Assembly (NCBI RefSeq): GCF_000020145.1
Contig: NC_010644.1
Coordinates: 1,550,001-1,614,000, forward strand
Source: Elusimicrobium minutum Pei191
GTDB taxonomy: Bacteria; Elusimicrobiota; Elusimicrobia; Elusimicrobiales; Elusimicrobiaceae
Direction of reading: 5' to 3'
DNA: 64,000 nt
Shown here: positions 14,044 through 28,108 of the stretch, one piece after another
How the letters are laid out: the number at the start of each line of letters is the position of its first letter
How positions within the stretch are numbered: the stretch's first letter is position 1
The notes under the pieces: generated by a model
Told to the model about the DNA's origin: nothing
Seen by the model: the letters and a program-made list of their open reading frames with translations, nothing else
The model's database searches: none
Position numbers and translations under genes: made by a program

Positions 14044-15927
14044 ATGGATATGTTCGGACAAGAAAAAGACAGATATATAAGCTTATCAAACAAATACCGC
14101 CCCCAAACCTTTGAAGACGTTGTGGGACAGGAAACTATTTCAAAAACTTTAACAAACGCCATTAAACTAGGACGCGTCGGACACGCCTACCTTTTTTACG
14201 GACCAAGAGGGTGCGGCAAAACAACTTCCGCAAGAATTTTCGCTAAAGCTTTAAACTGCACCGGCAACGGCAATAAGCCTGCCGCGTCGCCTTGCGGCAA
14301 ATGCCCGCAGTGTATAGAAATAGCCAACGGCAGCGATATGGACGTGCTTGAGTTAGACGCAGCCTCCAACACGCAGGTTGATAAAATAAGAGAAGCTATT
14401 ATAGACACTGTTGCCCTTGCCGCTACGAGGGACAGGTTTAAAATTTTTATTTTAGACGAAGTGCACATGCTCTCAGACAGTTCTTTTAACGCTTTACTCA
14501 AAACTATTGAAGAACCGCCGGCGCATGTTGTTTTTATCTTAGCCACTACAGAAAAACATAAGGTGCCGGCCACTATTTCAAGCCGCTGCCAGACATTCCG
14601 TTTCAGACCGATTACGCAAGAAGATATCTCCGCCCATTTAACCGCGCTTGCGCAAAAAGAAAATATTAATATTGAACCTAAAGCGGTTCAAATAATAGCT
14701 TCCCAGGCGGGCGGCGCGCTTAGGGACGCTCTTACCATTTTAGACAGAGCTATAGCTTATTCAGACGGCAGCATAACGGAGGAACTTGTTATAGACATGC
14801 TTGGCCTTATGCCTGAGGATATTTTAAAGGCCGCAGTTAAAGCTGTTTTAAAGAAAAATTATAATGAAATGCACACCGTTTTTGAAACCATTCAAATGGA
14901 AGGGTTCGACCCGCTTTCATTTTTGCGTGATTTGAAAAACGCTTTGGGCGATTTGTTTTATTTGTCCATAGGCCACGGACATGAACCGTTTTCAGGAGCT
15001 GCCGAACTTGCTAAAAAAACCTCCCCTTCTTATATAGCGGGACTTACAAGGAAAATAAATAAAGTTATTGACGAAACAAAATTCGCCGATTCACCTTTAA
15101 TAACCGCTGAAGTTGGTATATTTACGGTAATGGATTCCTGCATTGATTTAGACGCTTTTATAAAACGCTTGGAAAAACTTGAAAGCGCTTTAAGCGGTAA
15201 CAGCCCGACGGAAGAAGAAAAAAAAAATTTAAACAGCTTTAACCCGTCCCAAACAAAAGATAATAACATTGAAATAACCCAAAAACCGGTAACGGCTAAA
15301 ATAACTGTTGAAAATATAGGACAGGAAGCTCCCAAAAAAGCGCCTAAAGTTGTCCACGCGAAAATAGCGGATATTCCGTTGCCCGCAAAAAAATCTACAA
15401 CAGCACAGCCTGAAAATGCCGATTTCCAAAAATTTAAATTAAGTTTTAAAGATAACTTTTTTATTTTTGACGCACTTAAAAACTGCTCTTATGAAATAGA
15501 AGGGGATACCTGGTCTTTAAGTTTTAACAAAGCAAATTCCTTTTACGCTACGGCGCTTGAGGTAAAAATAGCAGAACTTGAGGAAAAATCACAAGAGCTG
15601 TTTGCTAAAAAAATAAATTTTATTTTCTCAGCGGAGATGGAAACAAAACCTGCCCCTGCAAAACCCGCTTCCGTAAAAGAAAAGAGAATCCCTTTTGCCC
15701 CGATTGAAGGAAATGCGGAACCTACATTTAAATCACCTTTTAAACCTAAAACACAGCAATCTCCCGTAAAAACAATTGAAGCTCCGGCGAAACCTGTTAT
15801 TTACAATGAGGAACCTTTTGTAAAAAAAGACTTTTCCGCCGAATTTGAAAGCGTTAAAACAGACAGGGAAATACCTGATTATGTAAAAAGTTTCCTGGGC
15901 ATAATACCGGGGGAGGTCATTAAATAA
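14044..15927 (+). CDS. dnaX: DNA polymerase III gamma/tau subunit
   Basis: A 627-residue clamp-loader ATPase. The Walker A motif is GPRGCGKT (53-60), the four-Cys zinc module is Cys72, 84, 87 and 90, and the Walker B is FILDEVHML. The sensor motif is LATTEKHKVP and the arginine-finger region is SSRCQTF. Domains I-III end near residue 375; the rest (to 627) is a low-complexity Lys/Pro/Ala linker with a tau-type tail. A run of ten A at 15218-15227 (codons 392-395) lies at this boundary, and stops occur within a few codons in both shifted frames, which could yield a gamma-length product of 395-399 residues. It overlaps recR by one base (TAATG). Confidence 0.97.
   Translation: MDMFGQEKDRYISLSNKYRPQTFEDVVGQETISKTLTNAIKLGRVGHAYLFYGPRGCGKTTSARIFAKALNCTGNGNKPAASPCGKCPQCIEIANGSDMDVLELDAASNTQVDKIREAIIDTVALAATRDRFKIFILDEVHMLSDSSFNALLKTIEEPPAHVVFILATTEKHKVPATISSRCQTFRFRPITQEDISAHLTALAQKENINIEPKAVQIIASQAGGALRDALTILDRAIAYSDGSITEELVIDMLGLMPEDILKAAVKAVLKKNYNEMHTVFETIQMEGFDPLSFLRDLKNALGDLFYLSIGHGHEPFSGAAELAKKTSPSYIAGLTRKINKVIDETKFADSPLITAEVGIFTVMDSCIDLDAFIKRLEKLESALSGNSPTEEEKKNLNSFNPSQTKDNNIEITQKPVTAKITVENIGQEAPKKAPKVVHAKIADIPLPAKKSTTAQPENADFQKFKLSFKDNFFIFDALKNCSYEIEGDTWSLSFNKANSFYATALEVKIAELEEKSQELFAKKINFIFSAEMETKPAPAKPASVKEKRIPFAPIEGNAEPTFKSPFKPKTQQSPVKTIEAPAKPVIYNEEPFVKKDFSAEFESVKTDREIPDYVKSFLGIIPGEVIK
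15218..15227 (+). other. Ten-adenine tract in dnaX: candidate slippage site
   Basis: Ten consecutive A in the frame GAA AAA AAA AAT. Gain of one A, or a -1 ribosomal shift, reads KKKFKQL then TAA at 15240-15242. Loss of one A, or +1, reads KKI then TAA at 15230-15232. Thermus dnaX uses a nine-A tract for transcriptional slippage and E. coli dnaX uses a -1 ribosomal shift at A AAA AAG. Confidence 0.6.
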
Positions 15928-16520
15928 TGAAAAGTTTTGACCGTCTTGTACGCGCTTTAAGGCGTTTGCCCGGCGTAGGCCCCAGACAGGCGGAGCGCTT
16001 TTCCGCTTATTTTTTAAAAACCAGCGACAGTGAAATTGACGAGTTTATTAACGCTTTATCCGCTCTTCGTGAAAATATTCATCTTTGTTCAATTTGTTTT
16101 GCCTATTCGGAAGACGGGGTTTGCGATATTTGTGAGGATTCTTCCCGCGAGCGTGATATCATTTGCGTAGTTGAAGACCCGCAAGACATTGAAGCTATTG
16201 AAAAAACAGGCGCATTTAAAGGCCTGTATCATGTGCTGCACGGCGCGCTGTCACCCATAGATGGCCGTGGCGTTGAAAATATAAAAATAAGAGAACTTAT
16301 TGAACGCATACATAATTCCCAAACACCTGTGAGAGAGGTTATTATAGCTACCGACCCTGACACTGAAGGAGAAACCACCGCCCTTTATATTGCCGACGCT
16401 TTAAGAGGACTTGTTGATAAAGTTTCCCGCATAGGTTACGGCGTTCCTTTAGGCGGCGATTTGGATTATTTAGACGAAATGACTTTAACCTATTCTTTAA
16501 AAGGCAGAACAAAACTATAA
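15927..16520 (+). CDS. recR: Recombination mediator protein RecR
   Basis: A 197-residue RecR, which with RecO and RecF loads RecA onto gapped DNA. The helix-hairpin-helix region (LRRLPGVGPRQAERF) is followed by a four-Cys zinc finger (CSICFAYSEDGVCDIC). The Toprim domain shows VVEDPQDIEAIEKTG and the ATDPDTEGETTA motif. Length is normal. The dnaX-recR linkage is widely conserved, and here the two genes overlap by one base. Confidence 0.97.
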   Translation: MKSFDRLVRALRRLPGVGPRQAERFSAYFLKTSDSEIDEFINALSALRENIHLCSICFAYSEDGVCDICEDSSRERDIICVVEDPQDIEAIEKTGAFKGLYHVLHGALSPIDGRGVENIKIRELIERIHNSQTPVREVIIATDPDTEGETTALYIADALRGLVDKVSRIGYGVPLGGDLDYLDEMTLTYSLKGRTKL

Positions 16521-16537
16521 AAATTTAAGAGGTTTTT

Positions 16538-18367
16538 ATGCATGTTGATTATTATAAAAGGCCTCTGTTTTTATTTCTTATATTTTACGCTCTGTTTCTT
16601 TTAACAACCCCTAACAAAATAAGTGACAACGACATCGCGCATAAAGCGCCGGCTAAAGCGGTAATAACCGCACTCGTAACGCAAAACCCGCAAATAAAAT
16701 CAGGCGGCGTTAATATTTTTGCAAAAGTGCTTACCTTAAACGGAGAGGATGTTAAAAGCAGAATTTACGCTAAGATGCCTCCTGATACAGAAGTTAATCT
16801 TTTTGATGTTGTAGAGCTGGAAGGACACCTCACCACTCCTTTTGCCGTAAATATACAAGGCAATTTTAACTGGGCTCAATATCTTGCCAACAAAAACATT
16901 CACACCCAATTTAACGCAGACAATGCTAAAGTAATAAAAAAAGCTCCGCTGTTTTTTACCTTTTTATGCAATATCAGAAAAGACATTTTAAACCTGTTTG
17001 AAAAATATTTCGATCGTGACGGCGCGGCTATTTTGGGCGGCATTGTTTTAGGCGCGCGGGGCGAAGTGCCTGCCGATCTTAACAAAGCGTTTAACGACAG
17101 CGGCGCCATGCACCTGCTTGTGGCTTCCGGCGGCAACGTCGGTTTTGTTACTTTAATAATGTATTACGTTTACGTGATACTGGGCGTAAAATATAACTGG
17201 CGGCTTCCTTTGGCTTTGGCGGCCGCGGGCGTTTACACAATTTTAGCGGGCGCGGACGCTCCCCTTGTTCGCGCATATCTTATGACTATTTGCACAGGCA
17301 TAGGTATAAAAACAGGCCGTAATTCCGGCGCGTTCCACGGCCTTTGCTTAGCCGCTTTAATTATTTTAATTACAAATCCCGGCAGCATAAAAGATGTCGG
17401 TTTTCAAATGTCTTTTTTAGCCACTTTTATCATTTTACTTTCAGTTAACTCCTTTAAACTGCCCGCCAAATGGCCCAAATACATAAAAATCCCTTTAGAA
17501 ATTTTTTTAATAACAACCTCGGTACAGCTTGTTTTGCTGCCTATATACGCCAATGTTTTTTACCGTTTTTCAATAACCGCGCTTCTATCAAATATTTTTT
17601 TAGTTCCCCTTTCCGGCATAATTATGGGGGCGGGGTTTTTATTATATTTTACGTATTTACTTAACATTTCTTTTTTATTTAAAGCGGTTTATTATATTAC
17701 GTTCGCGCTTCTTTTTGTTTTTAAATTTTTTGTTAATTTTTTCAGCTCATTTTCTTTTTCGGCCGTTTCGGTGCCGGCGCTAAGCGTGCCTTCAACGGCG
17801 CTGTTTTTTATAATATTATTTTTTATTTATAACTCGGTCTTTTTTAAACACCAAAAAATAATAGCGGCCGGTTTATCTTTGCTGCTTTTGCTTATTATTT
17901 TAATTAACCCTTTTAAACCTAAAAATTATGTTTTTGTTTTAGATTACCAAAACTCAAACGCCGTTGTTTTAAATATAAACGGGCAAACATTTATAACTAC
18001 AGAAAATTTTAATGACACGGTTTTGCAAAACACTCTTTATTCTCTTTCAAGAAAGCGGGCGGATATTTTATTTTCTAAAAAAGAAATTATTCCTTCGGTT
18101 AAAAGAGTTATACCTTTTACAGATATTTGGCCCGGTGAAGCCGTAACGCATAAAGACACCTCCGTTACGGCTCAATGGGGCATAAATAAAGGCTATGTTA
18201 AATTTTGGAATAATACGGGATACAGCGGCACAGATAAAGACAGCATGACTTTTGTTTTTGAAAATAAAGGAAACACTGTTTTAACAGGCGGGCTTAATAA
18301 TTTTGTTAAAATTAATGACGTTATCACAGAAGCAAAAAGAAATAAGAGCGTAAAAGTTAAACTTTAG
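16538..18367 (+). CDS. comEC: ComEC/Rec2-family DNA-uptake channel protein, with reduced C-terminus
   Basis: A 609-residue inner-membrane protein. ComEC forms the channel that passes single-stranded DNA during natural transformation. A first helix (about 9-24) precedes a soluble OB-like part, and the competence domain begins near 150 with ILGGIVLGARGEVP and HLLVASGGNVG. The family motif is usually SGLHV or SGxNI. About eight further helices run to about 465. The C-terminal part (470-609) begins VFVLDYQNSNAVVL, where full-length ComEC has a metallo-beta-lactamase domain, but no HxHxDH motif is visible and the domain is only about 140 residues. With type IV pilins in the window, competence is plausible. 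It overlaps nnrE tail-to-tail by 11 bases. Confidence 0.85.
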   Translation: MHVDYYKRPLFLFLIFYALFLLTTPNKISDNDIAHKAPAKAVITALVTQNPQIKSGGVNIFAKVLTLNGEDVKSRIYAKMPPDTEVNLFDVVELEGHLTTPFAVNIQGNFNWAQYLANKNIHTQFNADNAKVIKKAPLFFTFLCNIRKDILNLFEKYFDRDGAAILGGIVLGARGEVPADLNKAFNDSGAMHLLVASGGNVGFVTLIMYYVYVILGVKYNWRLPLALAAAGVYTILAGADAPLVRAYLMTICTGIGIKTGRNSGAFHGLCLAALIILITNPGSIKDVGFQMSFLATFIILLSVNSFKLPAKWPKYIKIPLEIFLITTSVQLVLLPIYANVFYRFSITALLSNIFLVPLSGIIMGAGFLLYFTYLLNISFLFKAVYYITFALLFVFKFFVNFFSSFSFSAVSVPALSVPSTALFFIILFFIYNSVFFKHQKIIAAGLSLLLLLIILINPFKPKNYVFVLDYQNSNAVVLNINGQTFITTENFNDTVLQNTLYSLSRKRADILFSKKEIIPSVKRVIPFTDIWPGEAVTHKDTSVTAQWGINKGYVKFWNNTGYSGTDKDSMTFVFENKGNTVLTGGLNNFVKINDVITEAKRNKSVKVKL

Positions 18368-19022
18368 ACAAAAGCTCTTTAGGCAGGCCGATATTTAAAA
18401 CTTTTATTTCCCCGCAAATATCTTTAGCCTTCAAACAGCCTTGCTTGGCAAAACCCATAGCGTAAGTATAATCAGCCTTAAAAACAGCGCCTTCATTTTG
18501 TCCGCTGTCGGCGTTTAGGCCGCTTGGTATATCAAAAGCTATTTTTATGGAGGGAGATGAGTTTAACACTTCAATAGTTTCTTTATAATTTTTTTTTACT
18601 TCGCCTTTAAAACCTATACCTAAAAGAGCGTCAATAACTATATAAGCGTCCGCCACGGAGTTTTTTAAATCGGACAAATTCTGATAAATTTCTTTTACGG
18701 AAAGGTGTGAAAAAAACGCTCTTTTTAAATTTTTTAATACCAACCCTTTGTAGGAGCCTTGGAAAGGCGGAATAATATAGCAGTAAACATCAACCCCGCG
18801 CTCCATAAGATATCTGCCGCATACAAGCCCGTCACCTCCATTACCCCCGTGCCCGCATACAATAATTACTTTTTTTTCCTTATTTTCAGATAAAAAACAA
18901 TTTAAAATTTCCTCAGCGGCGCTGCGGCCCGCGTGCTCCATAAGAACATCTTCGTCTATGCCGAATTCTTTTACGGCGGCGGTTTCTAATTCTCTCATTT
19001 TTTGGGAAGTTACTGTTTTCAT
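18357..19022 (-). CDS. nnrE: NAD(P)H-hydrate epimerase
   Basis: A 221-residue YjeF_N-domain protein that interconverts the R and S forms of NAD(P)H hydrate, repairing damaged cofactor. Characteristic segments are VDLMEHAGR-like DVLMEHAGRSAA (about 25-36), the nucleotide loop VCGHGGNGGDGLVCGR and DALLGIGFKGEV. It lacks the C-terminal dehydratase domain present in bifunctional Nnr, so NnrD must be encoded elsewhere. The start at 19022 has GGGGA upstream, and the ATGA overlaps the dus stop by four bases. A longer frame to 19118 is dismissed because it reads through dus. Confidence 0.9.
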   Translation of the reverse strand: MKTVTSQKMRELETAAVKEFGIDEDVLMEHAGRSAAEEILNCFLSENKEKKVIIVCGHGGNGGDGLVCGRYLMERGVDVYCYIIPPFQGSYKGLVLKNLKRAFFSHLSVKEIYQNLSDLKNSVADAYIVIDALLGIGFKGEVKKNYKETIEVLNSSPSIKIAFDIPSGLNADSGQNEGAVFKADYTYAMGFAKQGCLKAKDICGEIKVLNIGLPKELLSKV

Positions 19023-19975
19023 AAATATTCCCCAAAAAGTTTTTGCACTGCGGCTAATGTATTTAATTTTACAAACTCGCCTCTTATTTCCCCCGCCATC
19101 GGAAACCCTTTTATCCAAAAACCCACGGTTTTCCTACTCCTGGCAATACCGTTTTTCTCACCGTAAAAATTAACGTTTTGTTTAATCAGATTAAAAAATA
19201 TTTTAACGTTTTCTTTAGGATTTAACTCTATGTCACAACCGTTAATTATGCTTTTAAAAATATTAATATTGCCTATAGCTCCGCGCCCCACCATTATGCC
19301 GCGCACGCCGGTTTCAAACATTTTATCAGCTGTATTAACATCAACGATACCTCCGTTACCTATAACGGGTATTTTAACGGCCGAAACGACTTTGGCAAGA
19401 GCCTCTAAATCAGCCGGGCCGCCATGCACATTGCCGGCGTAACGCGCATGCATAATAACAGCCGCCGCGCCTTCGTTTTCAGCCAGTTTGGCAATTTTAT
19501 CACCTTTAAAATCGCCAGCGGTAAGACCTATTCTTGTTTTTAAAGTTACCGGAATACTCACGGAATTAACAGCGGCGTTTACTATTGAAGCTAACAATTT
19601 TTCATCTTTAATTAAAACGCAGCCCGCGCCCGCTCTGTTTATTTTTTTTACGGGACACCCCGCGTTAATATCAATAATATCAGCGCCCGCGGCCTCGGCC
19701 GCTTTGGCCGCTATGGAAATGCTTTCCGCATCCCCTCCGAAAATCTGCATGGAAACTGGATGCTCCTTTTTATCAACCGCTAACATTTTTACGCTTTTTT
19801 TATTATCATACTCAACCGCCTTGGCCGACACCATTTCCGCGCAAACTATGCCCGCGCCGTTATTTAAACAGTGTATTCTAAAAGGCGTGTCGGTAATACC
19901 GGCCATCGGGGCAAGCATAAGGTTATTTTTTGCCGCGAAAGAACCTATTGTTATTTTTTTAACGAAAGCATTCAT
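19019..19975 (-). CDS. dusB: tRNA-dihydrouridine synthase (DusB-like)
   Basis: A 318-residue FMN-dependent enzyme that reduces uridines in tRNA D loops. The TIM-barrel start is LAPMAGITDTPFR, and the catalytic Cys lies in INAGCPVKK (about 98-106). FMN-phosphate binding segments are PVIGNGGI and GIMVGRGAIG. It is translationally coupled to nnrE through a four-base overlap and starts three bases after the nucleotidase-like gene. The dus subtype (B) is judged from overall length and motifs. Confidence 0.93.
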   Translation of the reverse strand: MNAFVKKITIGSFAAKNNLMLAPMAGITDTPFRIHCLNNGAGIVCAEMVSAKAVEYDNKKSVKMLAVDKKEHPVSMQIFGGDAESISIAAKAAEAAGADIIDINAGCPVKKINRAGAGCVLIKDEKLLASIVNAAVNSVSIPVTLKTRIGLTAGDFKGDKIAKLAENEGAAAVIMHARYAGNVHGGPADLEALAKVVSAVKIPVIGNGGIVDVNTADKMFETGVRGIMVGRGAIGNINIFKSIINGCDIELNPKENVKIFFNLIKQNVNFYGEKNGIARSRKTVGFWIKGFPMAGEIRGEFVKLNTLAAVQKLFGEYL

Positions 19976-19978
19976 ATT

Positions 19979-21463
19979 TTATTTAACTTCTTTCCAGTTA
20001 AGCGGGAAATTAGATATTTTCTTCTTGCGGTATAAGCATTGGCGAAGCAGCGTGCGGATATCAACGCGCGTATTTTTAAATTCAACGGCATTTACAAATT
20101 CATCATGACCGAAGCCGCCCGCCATAATATGGTCTGTCGTGGCAAGACGGTAAATTGTGCCGGGGGAAACCTTTCCCCCTCTTATTTTTATGGATTTAAC
20201 TTTGCTGCCTTCCGGCTCGCTCATATTATATTCAACCGTCATACCTGAAATTTGAGGAAAATTATTTTTTGAAAGTAAACTTTTTTCCAAAATGTTTTTA
20301 AGCTCCTCACCCCTTATCCTTACGGACATAACCGTATCATTATAGGGGTAAACTTCATATAAAGAGTATTCCGTTATTTTCCCTTTTGGTATTGACACGC
20401 GCAGCGGATCAGAGTTAATTATGCCGATATCCGCTTTAGCCCAGTCTTTAATACAGCCGGCTATAATTTCACCAAGAACCGAAGGCCCGGTATCCACGTC
20501 GGCAATCAGATCTTCCGCTTCGGCTATAACATGGTTTAAGCGTTTAAAAGTAGCCGAACGCAAATCATCAACAATTTTTTTTATGGCTTCGTCTTCCCCG
20601 TATTTTTCTTTAGACAGAGGTATCGTTTCCAACTCAACTCCTGCCAATTTTTTATTAAAATCAAAATTAAGTTTTAGCTTTGTAAGCTTAATTAAAAAAG
20701 GCTCAGTTTTTACTATGTAAGCGTTGTCATATTCTTCAATAGATGTTTTTTCGCCCGAGGGCGCGCCGGCCAAAACAATATTAATGCCTTCAACTTGTTC
20801 CAAAATTGCTCTTTCTTCATAGTTATTTTCATTTTGGGCAACATCCACTAAAAGGATAACCGCGTCGGCGCCTTTATTCTTTAAATCATCAATAACAGCC
20901 TTGGCGGCTTCTATTTCGTCAAAAATTTTAATTTCGCCAAGTCTTCCGCCTGCGCTTTCCTTATCGTTTTTTATGACTAAAGAAAAGATGCCGATTTTTA
21001 CGCCGTTTATTTCTTTTATAATGCTTCTGGGAATATAAGAGGGCACCGCGCCCCCTCTTGTTTTAATATTGGAGGACAAAACGGTAAACTCGCTGTTTCT
21101 GATATTTTCGGACATTGTCGCCCAGCCTGGCGCAAGGTCCGTATAACTTAAACCGGTAGCGTCGTAACCCGCCATGCGCATCATTTTCAAAATATAAGAA
21201 CCTTTACCGATAGAGCCTTCCGGCGTTTCGGAAAACCAATCCCCGCTGTCTAACAAAAGTTTTTTGCCGTATTCGCGCTCAAAATAGTTTTTTAAAACGC
21301 CTATGCCGCCCGTTTCCTTATTTTCATAAGCGGGCTCCTGTCTAGGCCAGTACATGCCGCCTATGCCCGCGGTATGGTAAACGGTAACAGTTGTTAAATA
21401 TTCCTGTTTACAGGCCATGGCAAAAAGAACGGCTATTAATATAAAAACTATTTTTTTACTCAT
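19979..21463 (-). CDS. Degenerate 5'-nucleotidase/UshA-like lipoprotein (pseudoenzyme)
   Basis: A 494-residue paralogue of the gene at 21464-22939, with the same two-domain layout of an N-terminal calcineurin-like phosphoesterase and a C-terminal 5'-nucleotidase domain. An N-terminal hydrophobic segment ends in AMAC, a possible lipobox (Cys18). The metal ligands are lost: the SDTHG motif reads AGIGG (32-36), GNHEFD reads LSYTDL (105-110), the LLIHD His is replaced (LLVDV, 204-208) and GGHAH reads AGAPS (232-236). Only the LDSGD motif (71-75) remains. The C-terminal substrate domain appears complete. It is therefore probably a non-catalytic binding protein, or one with a changed reaction. It abuts its active paralogue with no gap. 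Confidence 0.8.
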   Translation of the reverse strand: MSKKIVFILIAVLFAMACKQEYLTTVTVYHTAGIGGMYWPRQEPAYENKETGGIGVLKNYFEREYGKKLLLDSGDWFSETPEGSIGKGSYILKMMRMAGYDATGLSYTDLAPGWATMSENIRNSEFTVLSSNIKTRGGAVPSYIPRSIIKEINGVKIGIFSLVIKNDKESAGGRLGEIKIFDEIEAAKAVIDDLKNKGADAVILLVDVAQNENNYEERAILEQVEGINIVLAGAPSGEKTSIEEYDNAYIVKTEPFLIKLTKLKLNFDFNKKLAGVELETIPLSKEKYGEDEAIKKIVDDLRSATFKRLNHVIAEAEDLIADVDTGPSVLGEIIAGCIKDWAKADIGIINSDPLRVSIPKGKITEYSLYEVYPYNDTVMSVRIRGEELKNILEKSLLSKNNFPQISGMTVEYNMSEPEGSKVKSIKIRGGKVSPGTIYRLATTDHIMAGGFGHDEFVNAVEFKNTRVDIRTLLRQCLYRKKKISNFPLNWKEVK

Positions 21464-22939
21464 TTAATTTTTAACCTGGAGGCGGCACTCGTCATTTAAA
21501 GGTTTTAAAGGCGAGTTCGCTTTTAAATCGGCTATAAGCATATCTCTAATGCTAAGCGAAATAAACTGTTTTTTATCCTCTTCAATTTTTTTAAACATCC
21601 AGCCTTCGGTTTTACCTTTGGCGATATATTCATTAGTAACAAGTTTATAAGTTTTGTTTTCCTGCAAAGGATTGCCGTTTATAAAAATTTCAACATTTTT
21701 AACTTTATTATTTTTTAATTTAAACTTTGCGGTTAACCCGTGGAAGTTATATAAAGCGCGGCCGTTTTTAATGCCGTTTATAAAAAAGTTTTTAACAAAT
21801 TTTCCGTCAACTTCAACAACGGCTATTTTATTATCAAAAGGAAATAAAGTAACAATATCGCGCATGGTAACAGGCCCCTTTTCAAGCCCTATTCTGGCGC
21901 CGCCCACGTTATGGACAATAAAATCTCCTTCAACGTTTTTGGCTATAACATCGGCTATCCAATTGTTAATGGGGGAATCTTTGCATCCTTCCTTTACCGG
22001 CGTTTTGCTTATATACGCAGCCGTGTTGCCTAAAACAACGTCCATACCCGGAACTCTCAAACTTTCGGCAAGTTCTTTAATTTGTTCGTCTTGCCCTGTT
22101 TTTTCTATATATAAAGGTATAAGTTCAGATTTGGCTGTTTTATATTTATTGGTTTCATCATCAATATCAACAACGATTTTAGACATCTTCTTTAAATGGC
22201 ATCCCGATTCCACCAAAATAGCGTTGCCCACAAAAATATTTTGGTATTCCTGGTGGGCGTGGCCGCCTAAAACAATATCTATTTCAGGTATTTTTTCCGC
22301 AATTAATTTATTGCTTACTTTTTGCGGGTGTTTTTCATCGCCGGCGGAATCATGTATAAGCAAAATAATAATATCGGCGTTTTCTTTTTTTACCTCTTTA
22401 ACAACTTTTTTTACAGTGCTTATAACATTTGCGAATTTAAAGTGTTTATTATCACCCTCTTTACCCACGCCGATTATGGCTATTTTAACGCCGGCTCTTT
22501 CAAAGATTTTATAAGGTTTTGTGTAAGGAAGCTGCCCTTTAAGCCTGCTGTCCGTAATTGTTGAGTTAAGCACGGGGAATTTAAACAAAGGAAGCACTTT
22601 TAAAAAATTATCCTCGCCAAAATCAAATTCATGGTTGCCTATTGTGGTAGCGTCGTAACCCATGGCGTTCATAAGTTCTGCCGAAGTTACGCATTTTGAG
22701 TTTTTTGCCTCAACCGTACCATTGCAATAATCACCGCTGTCTAAAAATAAAAAAGGAAGCTTTTCTTTATTAACAACATTTCTTGCCGCGGCAAAACCGC
22801 CCCACATTTTGTTGTTTTCCGTATTTCTTTCAGGATAATAGAATCCATGGGTATCGCTGGTATGGTAAATAATTAATTGTTTGGAAAATACAAAGCACGC
22901 GGTTAAAGCAAAAGCTAAAAGCAAAGATATTTTTTTCAT
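21464..22939 (-). CDS. 5'-nucleotidase / UshA-family metallophosphoesterase, lipoprotein
   Basis: A 491-residue exported enzyme. The N-terminus has a lipobox-like LTAC (12-15), so it is probably anchored to the outer or inner membrane facing the periplasm. Metal ligands are all visible: YHTSDTHG (25-32), LDSGDYCNG (66-74), GNHEFDFG (101-108), LLIHDSAGD (193-201) and GGHAHQ (225-230). The C-terminal domain (about 300-470) includes NVGGARIGL and LVTNEYIAKG, which bind the nucleoside part in this family. It likely hydrolyses nucleotides or UDP-sugars for salvage. It is first in an operon with the degenerate paralogue, dusB and nnrE. Confidence 0.9.
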   Translation of the reverse strand: MKKISLLLAFALTACFVFSKQLIIYHTSDTHGFYYPERNTENNKMWGGFAAARNVVNKEKLPFLFLDSGDYCNGTVEAKNSKCVTSAELMNAMGYDATTIGNHEFDFGEDNFLKVLPLFKFPVLNSTITDSRLKGQLPYTKPYKIFERAGVKIAIIGVGKEGDNKHFKFANVISTVKKVVKEVKKENADIIILLIHDSAGDEKHPQKVSNKLIAEKIPEIDIVLGGHAHQEYQNIFVGNAILVESGCHLKKMSKIVVDIDDETNKYKTAKSELIPLYIEKTGQDEQIKELAESLRVPGMDVVLGNTAAYISKTPVKEGCKDSPINNWIADVIAKNVEGDFIVHNVGGARIGLEKGPVTMRDIVTLFPFDNKIAVVEVDGKFVKNFFINGIKNGRALYNFHGLTAKFKLKNNKVKNVEIFINGNPLQENKTYKLVTNEYIAKGKTEGWMFKKIEEDKKQFISLSIRDMLIADLKANSPLKPLNDECRLQVKN

Positions 22940-23258
22940 ACATTCTCCTTATTAACAGCTATCTACAGAATAACAAAAATAACTACTGTTCTCAAGCACG
23001 CTTGAAAACACATTGGTTAAAGCATCTTATAAAGTTAAGCGGCTCTAACAAAATTGTTTTTTAATTTTAAAAGTAATAAACTATATATAAGCGGATTAAT
23101 TAATTTTTCTGCGCTTGTCCTTAAGCGGGCGGCGCGGAATTTAAAGCCATACTACAAGTAAAAAAATTGTTATTAATATGGTGCGGAAACGACTTCCCTG
23201 TTAATCCCCCTTACAGGCAAAAGGAAAGTAGTCTATTATAGTGCAAATTGGAGGTTCT
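22940..23258. other. Intergenic region between divergent operons
   Basis: About 320 AT-rich bases with no protein gene, RNA gene or clear repeat. It separates the leftward nucleotidase operon from the rightward oxidoreductase operon and must hold both promoters. The best plus-strand candidate is TTACAG followed after 17 bases by TATTAT (23234-23239), close to the ferredoxin gene. This match is weak. Confidence 0.4.
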
Positions 23259-23462
23259 ATGCCAAGAATTGAAGTAAATGAACAGTTATGCAAAGGTTGT
23301 TACCTTTGCGTTAAAGCCTGCCCTAAGCAATGTATCGCAAAATCAAAAAATTTCAGTAAGACGGGATATTATCCCGCGGTAATGGTTAAACCTGAGGCCT
23401 GCATCGGCTGCAAAATGTGTTTTATGGTATGCCCCGATGTGGCGATTACCGTTGAAAAATAA
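23259..23462 (+). CDS. 2[4Fe-4S] ferredoxin, delta subunit of the 2-oxoacid oxidoreductase
   Basis: A 67-residue protein with two CxxCxxCxxxCP clusters (CKGCYLCVKACP and CIGCKMCFMVCP), binding two [4Fe-4S] centres. As the first gene of ferredoxin-alpha-beta-gamma it is the electron-transfer subunit of a four-subunit Vor/Kor-type enzyme. The start at 23259 is set by GGAGG about five bases upstream; an in-frame ATG six codons earlier lacks one. Confidence 0.92.
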   Translation: MPRIEVNEQLCKGCYLCVKACPKQCIAKSKNFSKTGYYPAVMVKPEACIGCKMCFMVCPDVAITVEK

Positions 23463-23501
23463 TTTTTACCATCATACCTAAATTTAACAAAGAGGGAGTA
23501 T

Positions 23502-24629
23502 ATGAAAGAAAAAATTTTAATGAAAGGCAATGAAGCCATGGCTGAAGGCGCTTTACGCGCGGGATGCCGCTTTTTTGCAGGTTATCCCATAACGCCTCAA
23601 AATGAAGTACCCGAATACATGGCCGCTAAAATGGCAGACAGGGGGGGCGCGTTTGTACAAGCCGAGAGTGAAACTTCCGCAATTAACATGATTTACGGCG
23701 CGGCCGCCACAGGTGCAAGAAGCATGACTTCAAGCTCAAGCCCCGGGATAAGTTTAAAACAGGAAGGTATTTCCTATTTAGCCGGCGCTGATTTACCCTG
23801 CCTTATAGCAAACGTTATGAGAGGAGGCCCCGGCCTTGGCAGCATAACAGGCGCGCAGGGGGACTATTTCCAAGCCACAAGAGGCGGCGGCAACGGAGAC
23901 TACAGAACAATAGTTCTTGCCCCCAACTCAGTTGAAGAAATGGGCAATTTCCCGAAACTCGCTTTTGAGCTTTCCGAAAAATACAGAATCCCCGCCATGA
24001 TTTTGGCTGACGGCGTTCTAGGCCAAATGATGGAAGGTATGTCCTTTAATTTTGAGCCCGTAGACCCTAAAGATTTAAAAGAACCCGAGTGGGCTTTAGG
24101 CACACATACGGGAGAAAGGAAAAAGAGAATGGTGTTCTCCTACAAACTTAAAGACGGGGAACTTGAAGTATCCGTTTTTGAAAGAGCCGAAAAATATAAA
24201 GCCGTGGAAGAAAACGAAGTCCTTTTTGAAGAAAGATATACCGAGGACGCAGAAGTAATTTTAGTTGCTTACGGTATTTCCGCGCGCGCCGCTTTAGCCG
24301 GTATTGAACAGGCCAGAGCAAAGGGCGTTAAAGTAGGGTTACTACGCCCTATAACATTGTGGCCTTTCCCTTATAAAAGACTCTGCGAACTTGCATCAAA
24401 CGGCAAATGCAAAGCAATGCTTTGCGTGGAAATGAGTTTAGGGCAAATGATTGTTGACGTTAAACTCGCGGCTGGCGGGCAAGTACCCGTTTATCTGCAC
24501 GCAAGGCCGGGCGGCGGCATGCCCGCGGGCGAAGATATTGTTACTGCAATCAACTCAGTTTTAACAGGCAAAACGGAAAAGCTTTATCCGCATAATACCG
24601 GCGGCTGCGGCTGCAAGGGAGGCAAATAA
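23502..24629 (+). CDS. 2-oxoacid:ferredoxin oxidoreductase alpha subunit (Vor/Kor type)
   Basis: A 375-residue subunit carrying the pyruvate-flavodoxin oxidoreductase N-terminal and transketolase-like domains. The opening segment GYPITPQNEVPEYM is typical of VorB/KorA subunits, and the second domain begins near VILVAYGISARAAL. The enzyme oxidatively decarboxylates a 2-oxoacid (2-oxoisovalerate or 2-oxoglutarate) to an acyl-CoA with reduction of ferredoxin. The subunit order in this operon fits amino acid fermentation in anaerobes, but the substrate cannot be read from the sequence. The C-terminus has a CGCKGGK tail. Confidence 0.9.
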   Translation: MKEKILMKGNEAMAEGALRAGCRFFAGYPITPQNEVPEYMAAKMADRGGAFVQAESETSAINMIYGAAATGARSMTSSSSPGISLKQEGISYLAGADLPCLIANVMRGGPGLGSITGAQGDYFQATRGGGNGDYRTIVLAPNSVEEMGNFPKLAFELSEKYRIPAMILADGVLGQMMEGMSFNFEPVDPKDLKEPEWALGTHTGERKKRMVFSYKLKDGELEVSVFERAEKYKAVEENEVLFEERYTEDAEVILVAYGISARAALAGIEQARAKGVKVGLLRPITLWPFPYKRLCELASNGKCKAMLCVEMSLGQMIVDVKLAAGGQVPVYLHARPGGGMPAGEDIVTAINSVLTGKTEKLYPHNTGGCGCKGGK

Positions 24630-24631
24630 TT

Positions 24632-25375
24632 ATGGAAAAAATAACTAAAAGACCCGAAAGTTTGACAGATGTTCCTTTCCATTATTGCCCAGGCTGTGGA
24701 CACGGCGTTGTACACCGCCTTATAGCTGAAACTATGGATGAACTTAAAATAAGAGAGCGCACAATAGGCGTTGCCCCCGTGGGCTGCGCGGTTTTTGCCG
24801 ATTCTTATTTTAACTGTGATATGATACAAGGCGCCCATGGCAGAGGCCCGGCCATAGCCACAGGTATTAAAAGAGCAAAACCGGAAAGCATAGTTTTTTC
24901 CTACCAGGGCGACGGCGATTTGGCTTCCATCGGCATGGCTGAAATTGTTCACACCGCTATCAGAAGTGAAAACATTACCGTAATTTTTATTAACAACGCT
25001 ATTTACGGTATGACCGGCGGACAAATGGCCCCCACAACCTTAGTGGGACAACCCGCTACCACAGCGCCCAAAGGAAGGGATGCCGCTTTACAAGGCTATC
25101 CGATTAATATTTGCGAAATGTTTAGCCAGATAAAAGGCTCAAAATATTTAGAACGCGTTGCGGTAGACACCCCCCAAAACGTTATGAAAGCCAAAAAAGC
25201 CGTTAAAAAAGCTTTTGAAAACCAGGTAAACGGCGTTGGATTTAGCTTAGTTGAAGTTTTATCCCAATGCCCCACAAACTGGGGCGTTGATCCGGTTAAA
25301 TCATTGGAATTCGTGCAAAAACAAATGATGGAACAATACCCGTTAGGCGTGTTTAAAGACGAAGGGGGTAAATAA
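24632..25375 (+). CDS. 2-oxoacid:ferredoxin oxidoreductase beta subunit (TPP-binding)
   Basis: A 247-residue subunit with the thiamine-diphosphate site GDGDLASIG...NNAIYGMTGGQ and an N-terminal CPGCGHG segment. The two-base gap from the alpha gene and the three-base spacing to the gamma gene show a single operon. It binds TPP and, with alpha, forms the active site. Confidence 0.93.
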   Translation: MEKITKRPESLTDVPFHYCPGCGHGVVHRLIAETMDELKIRERTIGVAPVGCAVFADSYFNCDMIQGAHGRGPAIATGIKRAKPESIVFSYQGDGDLASIGMAEIVHTAIRSENITVIFINNAIYGMTGGQMAPTTLVGQPATTAPKGRDAALQGYPINICEMFSQIKGSKYLERVAVDTPQNVMKAKKAVKKAFENQVNGVGFSLVEVLSQCPTNWGVDPVKSLEFVQKQMMEQYPLGVFKDEGGK

Positions 25376-25377
25376 TT

Positions 25378-25914
25378 ATGTACCAGGGAATAAGAATATC
25401 AGGTTTTGGCGGGCAGGGCGTTGTTTCTGCGGGCATTTTACTCGCGCAGGCGGGACTTATTGACGGCAAAAAAGTAAGCTGGCTGCCATCCTACGGGCCC
25501 GAAATGCGCGGCGGCACGGCAAATTGTTCGGTAGTGATAGCTTCGGACGAAGTTTACACCCCTATCGTAACTGCGCCGGACACGGTTATAGTTATGAATG
25601 AGCCTTCATTACCAAAATTTGAGCCTTTGCTTAAAAAAGACGGTTTGTTAATTATTAACAGTTCTCTAATTAACTCAAAACCAAAAAGAACGGATATAAA
25701 AGTTATTTATGTTCCTTGTAATGAAATAGCCGAAAAACTGGGTTCGTTAAAAGTAGCTACGCTTGTGGCTATGGGTGCTTTTGCAAAGGCCACGGGCGCT
25801 GTTTCTATTGACACAATCGCAAGCGCTATGAAAGCTGTTTTCAAACGCGCCAAGCCCGAAATGCTTGAGCTTAACAAAAAAGCTCTTGAGGAAGGAGCCA
25901 AAGCGGCTGACTAA
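25378..25914 (+). CDS. 2-oxoacid:ferredoxin oxidoreductase gamma subunit
   Basis: A 178-residue gamma-type domain protein. The start GIRISGFGGQGVVSAG, followed by SYGPEMRGGTANCSVV, is diagnostic of the pyruvate/ketoisovalerate oxidoreductase gamma family. It completes the four-gene operon, which closes with a strong terminator 14 bases downstream. Confidence 0.93.
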   Translation: MYQGIRISGFGGQGVVSAGILLAQAGLIDGKKVSWLPSYGPEMRGGTANCSVVIASDEVYTPIVTAPDTVIVMNEPSLPKFEPLLKKDGLLIINSSLINSKPKRTDIKVIYVPCNEIAEKLGSLKVATLVAMGAFAKATGAVSIDTIASAMKAVFKRAKPEMLELNKKALEEGAKAAD

Positions 25915-25927
25915 GTTTATAAACATA

Positions 25928-25963
25928 ACAAAGCCCCCGTGTTTTTAACACGGGGGCTTTGTT
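25928..25963. terminator. Bidirectional terminator between converging genes
   Basis: Long perfect stem (ACAAAGCCCCCGTGTT / AACACGGGGGCTTTGT) with a three-base loop, between the rightward oxidoreductase operon and the leftward MFS gene. Confidence 0.9.
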
Positions 25964-25971
25964 ATTTAAAC

Positions 25972-27189
25972 TTATATTTTCGCGGGCTCTTCAACATTCA
26001 TTTTATGCTTTTTGGAAACTATTGCCGCCATCGCTGAGAAAAAACACGCCGGAACAACCATTAAAAGACAAAATAAAATAGCTATTCTTAAATTCCAAAT
26101 ATCCGAAAATTTACCTATAATCATAGGGGAAATAGCATCCCCCAAAGCATGGATTATAAAAATATTCAAAGCAAAAGCCATTGAACGCACTTTCTTAGAA
26201 GTATAGCCCACTATAGCCGCGCTTAAAGGCCCTGTCTGCGCGGAAGCGAACATGATAGCAAAAAACAAAAAGAAGATAGAACTTTCAAAAGTAGGCGCCA
26301 TAATACCCAAAACGGCAAATGGCATAGCTAAAGCGAAACTTGCCCCTGCGGTAATAAAATAAGCTTTTTGGGTTTTTTTAATAAGCCTGTCCGCCACCTG
26401 CCCGCCTAAAAATACGCCTAAAGCGCCTGAACACACAATCATAATTCCGAAAATAGTGCTTGACTTCGCCACGCTGTATCCGTAAAATCTGTTAAAGTAT
26501 GTGGGCAGCCAAGCCGCAAGTCCGCCCACAATAAATGTTGAGAAAGCCTGCGCAAGACAGATAAAAATAAAAATTTTATTTTTTAAAAGATGCACGTAAG
26601 CCCAAAGTTTGGGCTTTTCCGCCTTATCGGCAAAAACTCTTGCGTCTTTTATTTTAAAAGCCGCTAAAAGACCAAGCAGCAAACCCGGAACGCCAACAAT
26701 CATAAATGCAATACGCCAGCCGAAATGGTCGCCCAAAACACCCCCTAAAAAATACCCCAAAGCGCTTCCGGCCGGCAGAGCAAGCCCGAAAGAAGCCAAA
26801 ATTCTGGCCCTTTTTTCATGCGGATATTGTTCCGCCAAAAAACCCTGGGCAACGGTAGTAAAACCCGCCTCTCCGATACCTATAAAACTGCGTGCGGCAA
26901 GCAACTGCTTAAAATTATTCATAAACCCGGTAAAAAAAGTTGCTATGCTCCAAAGCACGGCGCTTAAACCCATCCAATGCTGTCTCGGGCTTCTGTCCGC
27001 AAAATAGCCCGCCAGGGGAGCGTAAATCATATAAACCAGCATAAAAGCGGAGGCTAAACTTCCGAGCTGCGCATCAGTAAGAGATAAATCTAATTTAATT
27101 AACGGAAACACTGCAAATAAAACCTGTCTGTCTATATAGTTAAACAGGTTAATTGCAAATAATAACCAAAATATTTTTTTAGGAGTCAT
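25972..27189 (-). CDS. MFS transporter, Spinster-like
   Basis: A 405-residue inner-membrane carrier with about 12 hydrophobic helices. The N-terminal NYIDRQVLFAVFP segment resembles the Spinster/Spns-type branch of the major facilitator superfamily. The loop 2-3 motif appears as GYFADRSPRQ and the helix 4 region as ARSFIGIGEAGF. The substrate is unknown; relatives move lipids, sugars or organic anions. It stands alone, tail-to-tail with the oxidoreductase operon and divergent from the parvulin genes. Confidence 0.85.
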   Translation of the reverse strand: MTPKKIFWLLFAINLFNYIDRQVLFAVFPLIKLDLSLTDAQLGSLASAFMLVYMIYAPLAGYFADRSPRQHWMGLSAVLWSIATFFTGFMNNFKQLLAARSFIGIGEAGFTTVAQGFLAEQYPHEKRARILASFGLALPAGSALGYFLGGVLGDHFGWRIAFMIVGVPGLLLGLLAAFKIKDARVFADKAEKPKLWAYVHLLKNKIFIFICLAQAFSTFIVGGLAAWLPTYFNRFYGYSVAKSSTIFGIMIVCSGALGVFLGGQVADRLIKKTQKAYFITAGASFALAMPFAVLGIMAPTFESSIFFLFFAIMFASAQTGPLSAAIVGYTSKKVRSMAFALNIFIIHALGDAISPMIIGKFSDIWNLRIAILFCLLMVVPACFFSAMAAIVSKKHKMNVEEPAKI

Positions 27190-27247
27190 TTAATAGATTA
27201 TATTAAAATAGTAGATAAAACTGGGTAAAAAATGCTAAATTAAATAT

Positions 27248-28108
27248 ATGAGAAGAATTGTAATAATTTCCGTGCTCGCCGCTTTGTTGTCGGCAGGCTG
27301 TAAAGAGGAAAAACCTGCGGCCAAAGCGCATCCTTCCAACGCTCTTGCAAATGTGGGGGGAGTTTTCATAACACAAAAAGATTTTGATAATGCCGTTATA
27401 GATGAAACTTTAAACAGAAAATATCTTGAAACGTCTTTCGGCAAAAACGCGCTTATAAACGCGTTGGTTAGAGAACAGCTTATACAGCAGGCATCTTTAA
27501 AAAGCGGGTCCGCACAATCCGAAGAGTTCATTAAAACGATTACAGATATTCAAAATGATTTCAGCAAAAGGCTTGAAGAAACAAAAAAGGAAGTCGCCAC
27601 AAAAATATGGATTGACTCTTTAAGAAACAAAGGGGAGATATCGGTTACCGAAGACGAAATAAAGGATTACCATAAAAAGTATTCCTATGAAATGACTATA
27701 AGGCAAATGCTTTTAACAGACCCCGATACAGCCAACCTGGTTTTGAGAGAGCTAAAGGCCACAAACAACAGCAACAGGGAAAAAAGATTTATTGAACTCG
27801 CTAAAAGATACTCAATAGATTTGGACGATGTTTCAACTGACGGCAAACAGTTTACCTTCATGCCGGGTGAATTTCTGCCTGAAATTGAAAACGCTTCCGC
27901 AAATTCCTCTTCGGGCTTAGTACAGGGGTTTTTTAAAACATCAAGAGGATTTCATATAATATATAAAGCGGGGGAAAAGAAAATTACTTTAAAAGACGCC
28001 CGTGACAGAATAAAAAATATTCTTGAAAAGAAAAAGTTTGACGATTATTTAGAAAGTCTTGCAGTAAAATATAAAGTAGAGGTATATAAAACATATGAAA
28101 GTAAATAA
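27248..28108 (+). CDS. PpiC/SurA-type lipoprotein (parvulin-like)
   Basis: A 286-residue protein with a lipoprotein signal (LLSAGC, Cys18). An N-terminal SurA_N-like helical chaperone region (about 30-130, with VGGVFITQKDFDNAV) is followed by a short parvulin-like domain starting MTIRQMLLTDP and ending GFHIIYKAGE. The parvulin core is divergent; the middle signature (usually DxxSxxxGGxLG) reads DDVSTDGKQFTFMPG, so isomerase activity is uncertain. It likely helps fold outer-membrane proteins in the periplasm. Its end overlaps the next gene by 14 bases. Confidence 0.8.
   Translation: MRRIVIISVLAALLSAGCKEEKPAAKAHPSNALANVGGVFITQKDFDNAVIDETLNRKYLETSFGKNALINALVREQLIQQASLKSGSAQSEEFIKTITDIQNDFSKRLEETKKEVATKIWIDSLRNKGEISVTEDEIKDYHKKYSYEMTIRQMLLTDPDTANLVLRELKATNNSNREKRFIELAKRYSIDLDDVSTDGKQFTFMPGEFLPEIENASANSSSGLVQGFFKTSRGFHIIYKAGEKKITLKDARDRIKNILEKKKFDDYLESLAVKYKVEVYKTYESK

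What the first reader, a model, noticed from the sequence alone, without database searches (positions are those of the whole stretch)
19979..22939. Tandem nucleotidase genes: one intact, one pseudoenzyme
The 21464-22939 gene keeps SDTH, GNHEFD, LLIHD and GGHAH. The adjacent 19979-21463 paralogue has lost four of the metal-ligand motifs while keeping the C-terminal substrate domain and a signal peptide. The pair could be a hydrolase with a partner or decoy binding protein.
Basis: partly seen in the sequence, partly recalled or inferred. Interest (0 to 1): 0.55.

Follow-up and report, generated by a model that had tools for sequence, protein, structure and literature searches.

The report
Nucleotidase with dead lipoprotein twin
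A secreted enzyme that strips phosphate from nucleotides is encoded directly before a sister protein that has lost the enzyme's metal site but carries a membrane-anchor signal, and the pair has been kept by selection across related gut and environmental bacteria, which makes it a good case for asking what 'dead' enzyme copies are for.

Summary
21464-22939(-) (AC) is an intact UshA-type 5'-nucleotidase. 19979-21463(-) (PS) starts directly after AC's stop codon and has the same predicted fold, but keeps 1 of 9 aligned metal-site residues, plus the nucleotide-binding C domain.

Beyond the finding:
- PS belongs to one clade seen in 52 of 52 sampled genomes of the window's family and 15 of 17 of a second family of the order. 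Outside these, 32 of 34 full-length UshA-type copies read keep all nine residues; no PS-type copy was seen.
- PS looks like a lipoprotein (62 of 64 match a loose lipobox, 12 of 64 the strict one; 64 of 64 have the cysteine). Intact copies rarely do (3 of 112 loose, 1 strict: the window's own AC).
- PS is under purifying selection (median dN/dS 0.106; AC 0.074), with conservation shifted to the C domain.
- One relative has a half-degraded site (5 of 9); one MAG has PS split in two ORFs.

Best reading: a selected, membrane-tethered pseudoenzyme that binds nucleosides or nucleotides beside a soluble nucleotidase. Binding is inferred. A direct AC-PS complex got no support (AlphaFold of the joined pair: pTM 0.52; neutral co-evolution test). 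New variant of a known kind; my paper searches, in one open-access library, found no precedent.

The parts
21464..22939 (-). AC: intact secreted UshA-type 5'-nucleotidase, 491 aa
   Evidence: ORF; Pfam Metallophos and 5_nucleotid_C; nearest solved sequence 3ivd, E 1.2e-39
22250..22870 (-). AC catalytic (Metallophos) domain, residues 24-230, with 9 of 9 metal-site/catalytic residues
21590..21994 (-). AC 5_nucleotid_C domain, residues 316-450
19979..21463 (-). PS: pseudo-nucleotidase, 494 aa, first base directly after AC's stop codon (zero gap)
   Evidence: AlphaFold2 model pLDDT 93.6, pTM 0.89; UshA/CD73 fold
21410..21463 (-). PS signal peptide with lipobox-like FAMAC, Cys18 as predicted lipidation site
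   Evidence: (C18 invariant in 57 aligned rows); the window's own box fits the loose, not the strict, pattern
20108..20500 (-). PS 5_nucleotid_C domain, residues 322-452
20069..20152 (-). PS C-terminal conserved stretch, residues 438-465 (D444, H445, GGFGH, EFKNT); D444 and E461 invariant in 57 aligned rows
19019..19975 (-). tRNA-dihydrouridine synthase (Dus) gene, 3 bases after PS's stop codon; probably the same transcript

Best explanation
AC is a soluble periplasmic nucleotidase that makes nucleosides (family knowledge). PS is a paralogue from an old tandem duplication that lost its metal site, acquired a lipoprotein signal and was then kept by selection. Most likely PS is a membrane-tethered, non-catalytic binder: its C domain holds nucleosides or nucleotides (AC's product or substrate) at the membrane and so helps AC in nucleotide salvage. 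Shown here: loss of the site, one clade, tight gene linkage, lipoprotein-type signal, purifying selection, constraint moved to the C domain, intact predicted fold. Inferred: ligand binding, the role in salvage, cooperation with AC. Direct contact with AC is only a possibility (I put it near 0.25).
For: Loss of 8 of 9 site residues. One clade, SH-aLRT 100. PS found in 52 of 52 f1 genomes and 15 of 17 f2 genomes of the sample. 57 of 60 adjacent AC-PS pairs lie within -8 to +13 bases. In the GTDB scan 67 of 71 loci with a full-length PS have an intact neighbour upstream. Lipobox, loose pattern: PS 62 of 64; intact copies 2 of 83 in the order and 1 of 29 outside. Median dN/dS over 14 disjoint pairs: PS 0.106, AC 0.074. 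Columns conserved at 90% or more: PS N domain 26 of 253, C domain 37 of 211; AC 61 of 248 and 31 of 211; interaction z -3.4. Against UshA (alignment), F429 becomes Y374 and R410 stays R355; UshA F429 and F498 stack the purine (passages of PMC7922932).
Against: No ligand binding was tested. The pocket is altered: UshA F498 becomes H445 and D504 becomes F451; the F498 position is His in f1 but Ser in f2, so the ligand may differ between families or not be a nucleoside. AC has a complete site and pocket of its own and needs no helper for catalysis. The AlphaFold2 model of the joined pair gave pTM 0.52. Mirror-tree: AC-PS r 0.911 is below PS-Dus r 0.939. Only 12 of 64 PS match the strict lipobox, and the window's own AC also matches it. 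G080 has PS split; G104 and G118 show none.
Confidence: 0.42

Rival explanations
1. PS and AC form a stable hetero-oligomer; PS tethers AC to the membrane or tunes its activity.
For: Near-constant adjacency and probable translational coupling (57 of 60 pairs within -8 to +13 bases, 25 overlapping); complementary signals, soluble AC against lipoprotein PS. CD73, a homologue, is a membrane-anchored dimer (recalled).
Against: AlphaFold2 of the joined pair: both halves well folded but pTM 0.52. Mirror-tree neutral. Linkage alone also fits a shared pathway.
Confidence: 0.25
2. PS is a new enzyme: the old metal site was rebuilt for other chemistry.
For: Most f1 copies share polar residues at the old site: D 44 of 49, N 41 of 49, N 43 of 49, K 35 of 49. 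The family is known to change chemistry, e.g. SoxB.
Against: The set is not shared by the window's genus or by f2; no catalytic His; N-domain conservation has fallen.
Confidence: 0.15
3. PS is a decaying or neutral remnant of a tandem duplication.
For: Graded loss (G132 keeps 5 of 9), very divergent f2 copies (445-453 aa in G030, G120, G175), a split copy in G080.
Against: dN/dS 0.054-0.184 in 14 pairs; full-length ORFs across deep divergence; invariant Cys18, C337, D444, E461 in 57 rows.
Confidence: 0.04
4. PS is a stand-alone receptor or uptake lipoprotein for a non-nucleoside ligand; its link to AC is historical.
For: Pocket residues changed and different between f1 and f2.
Against: AC stays the direct neighbour across two families, although the genes around the pair differ.
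Confidence: 0.14

Closest known systems
UshA / CD73-type 5'-nucleotidases (PF00149 + PF02872; structures 1ush, 3ivd, 4h2i)
   Same: AC fits in domains and site residues. PS shares the two-domain fold: VIA-align Z 33.1 to 3ivd over 468 residues, 32.5 to 1oi8 over 459.
   Different: PS lacks the dinuclear site and the catalytic His, has a lipoprotein-type signal, and has changed pocket residues.
Metallophosphoesterase-fold pseudoenzymes, e.g. the DNA polymerase B-subunits (recalled, not tested)
   Same: Metal-ligand loss in a calcineurin-like fold with retention of a structural or binding role.
   Different: Those belong to other branches of the fold; PS keeps a 5_nucleotid_C domain and lies beside its active paralogue.
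SoxB thiosulfohydrolase (TIGR04486)
   Same: Same fold; VIA-align Z 31.0 to 2wdc.
   Different: Both window proteins score far under the family cut-off of 550 bits: PS 81.1, AC 104.6.
UshA-like (seleno)protein NF041198
   Same: Same superfamily; partial matches.
   Different: PS 70.6 and AC 67.2 bits against a cut-off of 275.

Membership tests
UshA-type 5'-nucleotidase (AC) | Metallophos + 5_nucleotid_C domains above curated cut-off | tested here: met
   48 and 95.4 bits against 21.5 and 23.6
UshA-type 5'-nucleotidase (AC) | Metal-site and catalytic residues | tested here: met
   9 of 9
UshA-type 5'-nucleotidase (AC) | Hydrolysis of nucleoside monophosphates | not testable with these tools
   needs an assay
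UshA-type 5'-nucleotidase (PS) | 5_nucleotid_C domain | tested here: met
   107.6 bits against 23.6
UshA-type 5'-nucleotidase (PS) | Two-domain fold | tested here: met
   model pTM 0.89; Foldseek and VIA-align matches
UshA-type 5'-nucleotidase (PS) | Metallophos domain by sequence | tested here: not met
   no match at E<=0.001
UshA-type 5'-nucleotidase (PS) | Dinuclear metal ligands and catalytic His | tested here: not met
   1 of 9 kept
Lipoprotein (PS) | Signal peptide with lipobox Cys | tested here: met
   loose pattern 62 of 64, Cys in 64 of 64; strict pattern only 12 of 64; lipidation itself untested
SoxB (TIGR04486) | Score above cut-off | tested here: not met
   81.1 and 104.6 against 550 bits
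UshA-like (seleno)protein NF041198 | Score above cut-off | tested here: not met
   70.6 and 67.2 against 275 bits

The most novel reading that the evidence does not exclude
An order of bacteria turned a duplicated periplasmic nucleotidase into a membrane-anchored nucleotide or nucleoside receptor that works as the obligate, non-catalytic half of an enzyme/pseudoenzyme salvage device, with the metal site erased step by step (G132 as a living intermediate).
Probability: 0.3. Interest if true: 0.65.

Novelty: new variant of a known kind. Interest (0 to 1): 0.5.

Why it matters
It offers a natural series for the question of how and why an enzyme copy is kept after its catalysis dies: intact neighbour, half-degraded copy, fully degraded copies, very divergent copies, all at one locus, with a change of cell address (soluble to lipoprotein) along the way. 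If PS binds nucleosides it would be a new kind of capture protein derived from an enzyme. It also warns annotators: PS-type genes can be called 5'-nucleotidases on the strength of their C domain although the active site is gone.

Tried and rejected
Mirror-tree test of AC-PS co-evolution, with Dus as control, in 45 f1 genomes: neutral; PS follows Dus more closely than AC.

AlphaFold2 of AC and PS as one chain: pTM 0.52, both halves pLDDT about 90. It gives no mutual arrangement; it is not proof of no contact (47 rows, of which 15 hold both genes of one genome).

Age of the duplication: the free rooted tree places the PS clade next to intact copies of families f7/f8 (SH-aLRT 84); holding PS together with the order's intact copies is not rejected (AU p 0.224). 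So the duplication may be of the order's age, or older with loss elsewhere. Synteny (AC-PS-c7 in f2, AC-c7 in f7/f8) fits a tandem origin.

First call of 'single intact copies only' outside the order: checked again and mended. Second matches were read: 32 of 34 full-length UshA-type copies keep 9 of 9; two (G188 C18, G164 C73) lack the catalytic His and the second Asp but keep the other seven. A further set of copies from those families, without the C domain, and an 882-aa frame in G059 align poorly and were not classified. 89 of 198 genomes had no match.

Relatives outside the phylum: the GTDB scan used two peptide patterns from the f1 C domain, so f2-like or more distant PS would be missed; its 75 relatives are titled Elusimicrobi..., Avelusimicrobium or only 'uncultured bacterium'. 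They overlap with the 198-genome sample and are not independent. Plasmid searches gave homologues under 60% identity only, best rows about 22-29%; the seven fetched keep 9 of 9, 8 of 9 or, in the Photobacterium copy, 6 of 9.

Papers: searches looked for a precedent; none found in the listings. The library is open-access only, and one search had to drop the prime sign. PMC7922932 and PMC11495043: passages only. Searches served other points.

Rows dropped: of 180 aligned ORFs 174 were full-length, 440 aa or more; trees used 102 and 64 thinned rows; A1 holds 57 of 61 PS rows; A2 holds 56 PS and 47 intact rows. The 14 dN/dS pairs were chosen disjoint from 76 pairs with dS under 1.6; dS above 1 in several makes those values rough. 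G126 was left out of the f1 conservation counts.

Full report
What was checked. The two ORFs lie where the finding says. AC (21464-22939, minus) has both domains of a UshA-type 5'-nucleotidase; PS (19979-21463, minus) has only the C-terminal one by Pfam. PS begins at the base after AC's stop codon. At nine aligned site positions AC keeps 9 and PS 1. The window lies in a 1,643,562-base single-contig genome; from recall this is the size of Elusimicrobium minutum Pei191 (lineage); no named record was compared.

PS is still folded like its ancestor. AlphaFold2 with 103 aligned rows gave pLDDT 93.6 and pTM 0.89. The model matches UshA, CD73, 3ivd and SoxB. Part of this likeness is expected, because intact homologues were in the alignment.

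PS is a family, not a local accident. In 198 sampled genomes of the phylum 109 have some match. In the window's family f1, 52 of 52 have a PS-type copy: 49 full-length with at most 2 of 9 residues, one intermediate (G132), two known from fragments at contig edges (G128, G134). In family f2, 15 of 17: 11 full-length, 3 very divergent lipoproteins of 445-453 aa (G030, G120, G175) and one in two ORFs (G080). For G104 and G118 only an intact copy was found, in a different gene neighbourhood. Outside f1 and f2, 32 of 34 full-length UshA-type copies read keep 9 of 9, and the other two keep seven; no PS-type neighbour was seen at the 29 loci whose surroundings were read.

Trees. PS copies form one clade with SH-aLRT 100 in both trees. 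The place of its stem is unsure. The G132 copy joins the clade; it keeps D, H, D and two His, lacks the GNHE pair, and already has the Asn typical of f1 at one His position.

Linkage. AC precedes PS on the same strand in 60 adjacent pairs; 57 have a gap of -8 to +13 bases and 25 overlap. In the GTDB scan, 67 of 71 loci with a full-length PS have a full-length intact gene directly upstream; of the other four, three are cut by a contig end and one has a shortened intact ORF. Several f1 genomes have a further intact copy upstream.

Address. By a loose lipobox pattern 62 of 64 PS are lipoproteins, and the two others (G132, G106) also have a Cys at the end of the hydrophobic stretch; intact copies match in 2 of 83 (order) and 1 of 29 (outside). 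By the strict pattern it is 12 of 64 PS and 1 of 112 intact copies; that one is the window's own AC (LTAC), so AC's address is not certain here. The mature PS starts only about six residues before its first strand.

Selection. Over 14 disjoint pairs PS has dN/dS 0.054-0.184 (median 0.106), AC 0.018-0.266 (median 0.074); PS is higher in 9 of 14. In AC the N domain is the more conserved (61 of 248 columns against 31 of 211); in PS it is the C domain (37 of 211 against 26 of 253); the swing has z -3.4 if columns are taken as independent.

Pocket. In UshA, Phe429 and Phe498 stack the purine and His117 is catalytic (passages of PMC7922932). In the alignment PS has Tyr374 and His445 there, keeps Arg355 for Arg410, and has Asp376 for Asn431 and Phe451 for Asp504 (roles of Arg410, Asn431 and Asp504 recalled). 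D444 and E461 are invariant in 57 rows. His445 is typical of f1 (95% of 48) and replaced by Ser in f2. So a binding site is plausible but altered, and not the same in both families.

Old metal site. In f1 most copies have D, Q or E, N, D or E, K, S or A, N, D or G at the nine positions minus the sixth. The window's genus and f2 differ. No shared alternative ligand set is seen; a changed site in part of f1 cannot be excluded.

Contact with AC. Reading the single stop between the genes as Gln gives one 986-residue chain; AlphaFold2 with 47 rows gave pLDDT 89.9 and pTM 0.52. Each half is well folded, their mutual place is not. The mirror-tree test was neutral. So contact is neither shown nor excluded.

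Conclusion. The pair is real, old for a pseudoenzyme, and selected. The best reading is a membrane-tethered binder made from an enzyme, serving nucleotide salvage together with AC. The binding and salvage steps are inferences.

Noticed in passing
G000:C1:1121307-1122755 (L002, L134; own genome, outside the window): A third nucleotidase of the own genome, 33% identical to AC, 9 of 9 site residues but changed C-domain motif (N, T, K in place of N, G, R).
   Followed up: partly
c7 genes, e.g. L078:7372-8100, L054:5654-6250, L059:4223-4810: Downstream of AC or AC-PS in f2, f5, f7, f8 lies a small membrane protein weakly like class B acid phosphatase (Pfam 16.8 bits, under the cut-off of 27, in one of three scanned). 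Its nucleophile motif is DYDDT/DYDDT-like in f5 (3 of 3) and f8, but E replaces the first D in 11 of 11 f2 copies and 4 of 7 f7 copies: perhaps a second dead phosphatase.
   Followed up: partly
L220 (G188:C18) and L248 (G164:C73): UshA-type copies outside the order in which the catalytic His and the second Asp are replaced while the other seven positions stay: independent partial degradation.
   Followed up: no
f1 three-gene arrays, e.g. L095:7034-8530, L088 region in L112:7002-8480: An extra nearly intact copy upstream of AC in several f1 genomes, in most of which the D of GNHEFD is Ala (8 of 9 kept); in G114 this copy is in two ORFs.
   Followed up: no
window 14044-28108: Neighbours read as dnaX-like, recR-like, ComEC (Competence + DUF4131), NAD(P)HX epimerase (YjeF_N), Dus, 2-oxoacid:ferredoxin oxidoreductase-like subunits, an MFS-like transporter and a SurA/PPIC-type lipoprotein; Pfam supports ComEC, YjeF_N, Dus and PPIC, the rest is recalled from the sequence.
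   Followed up: no
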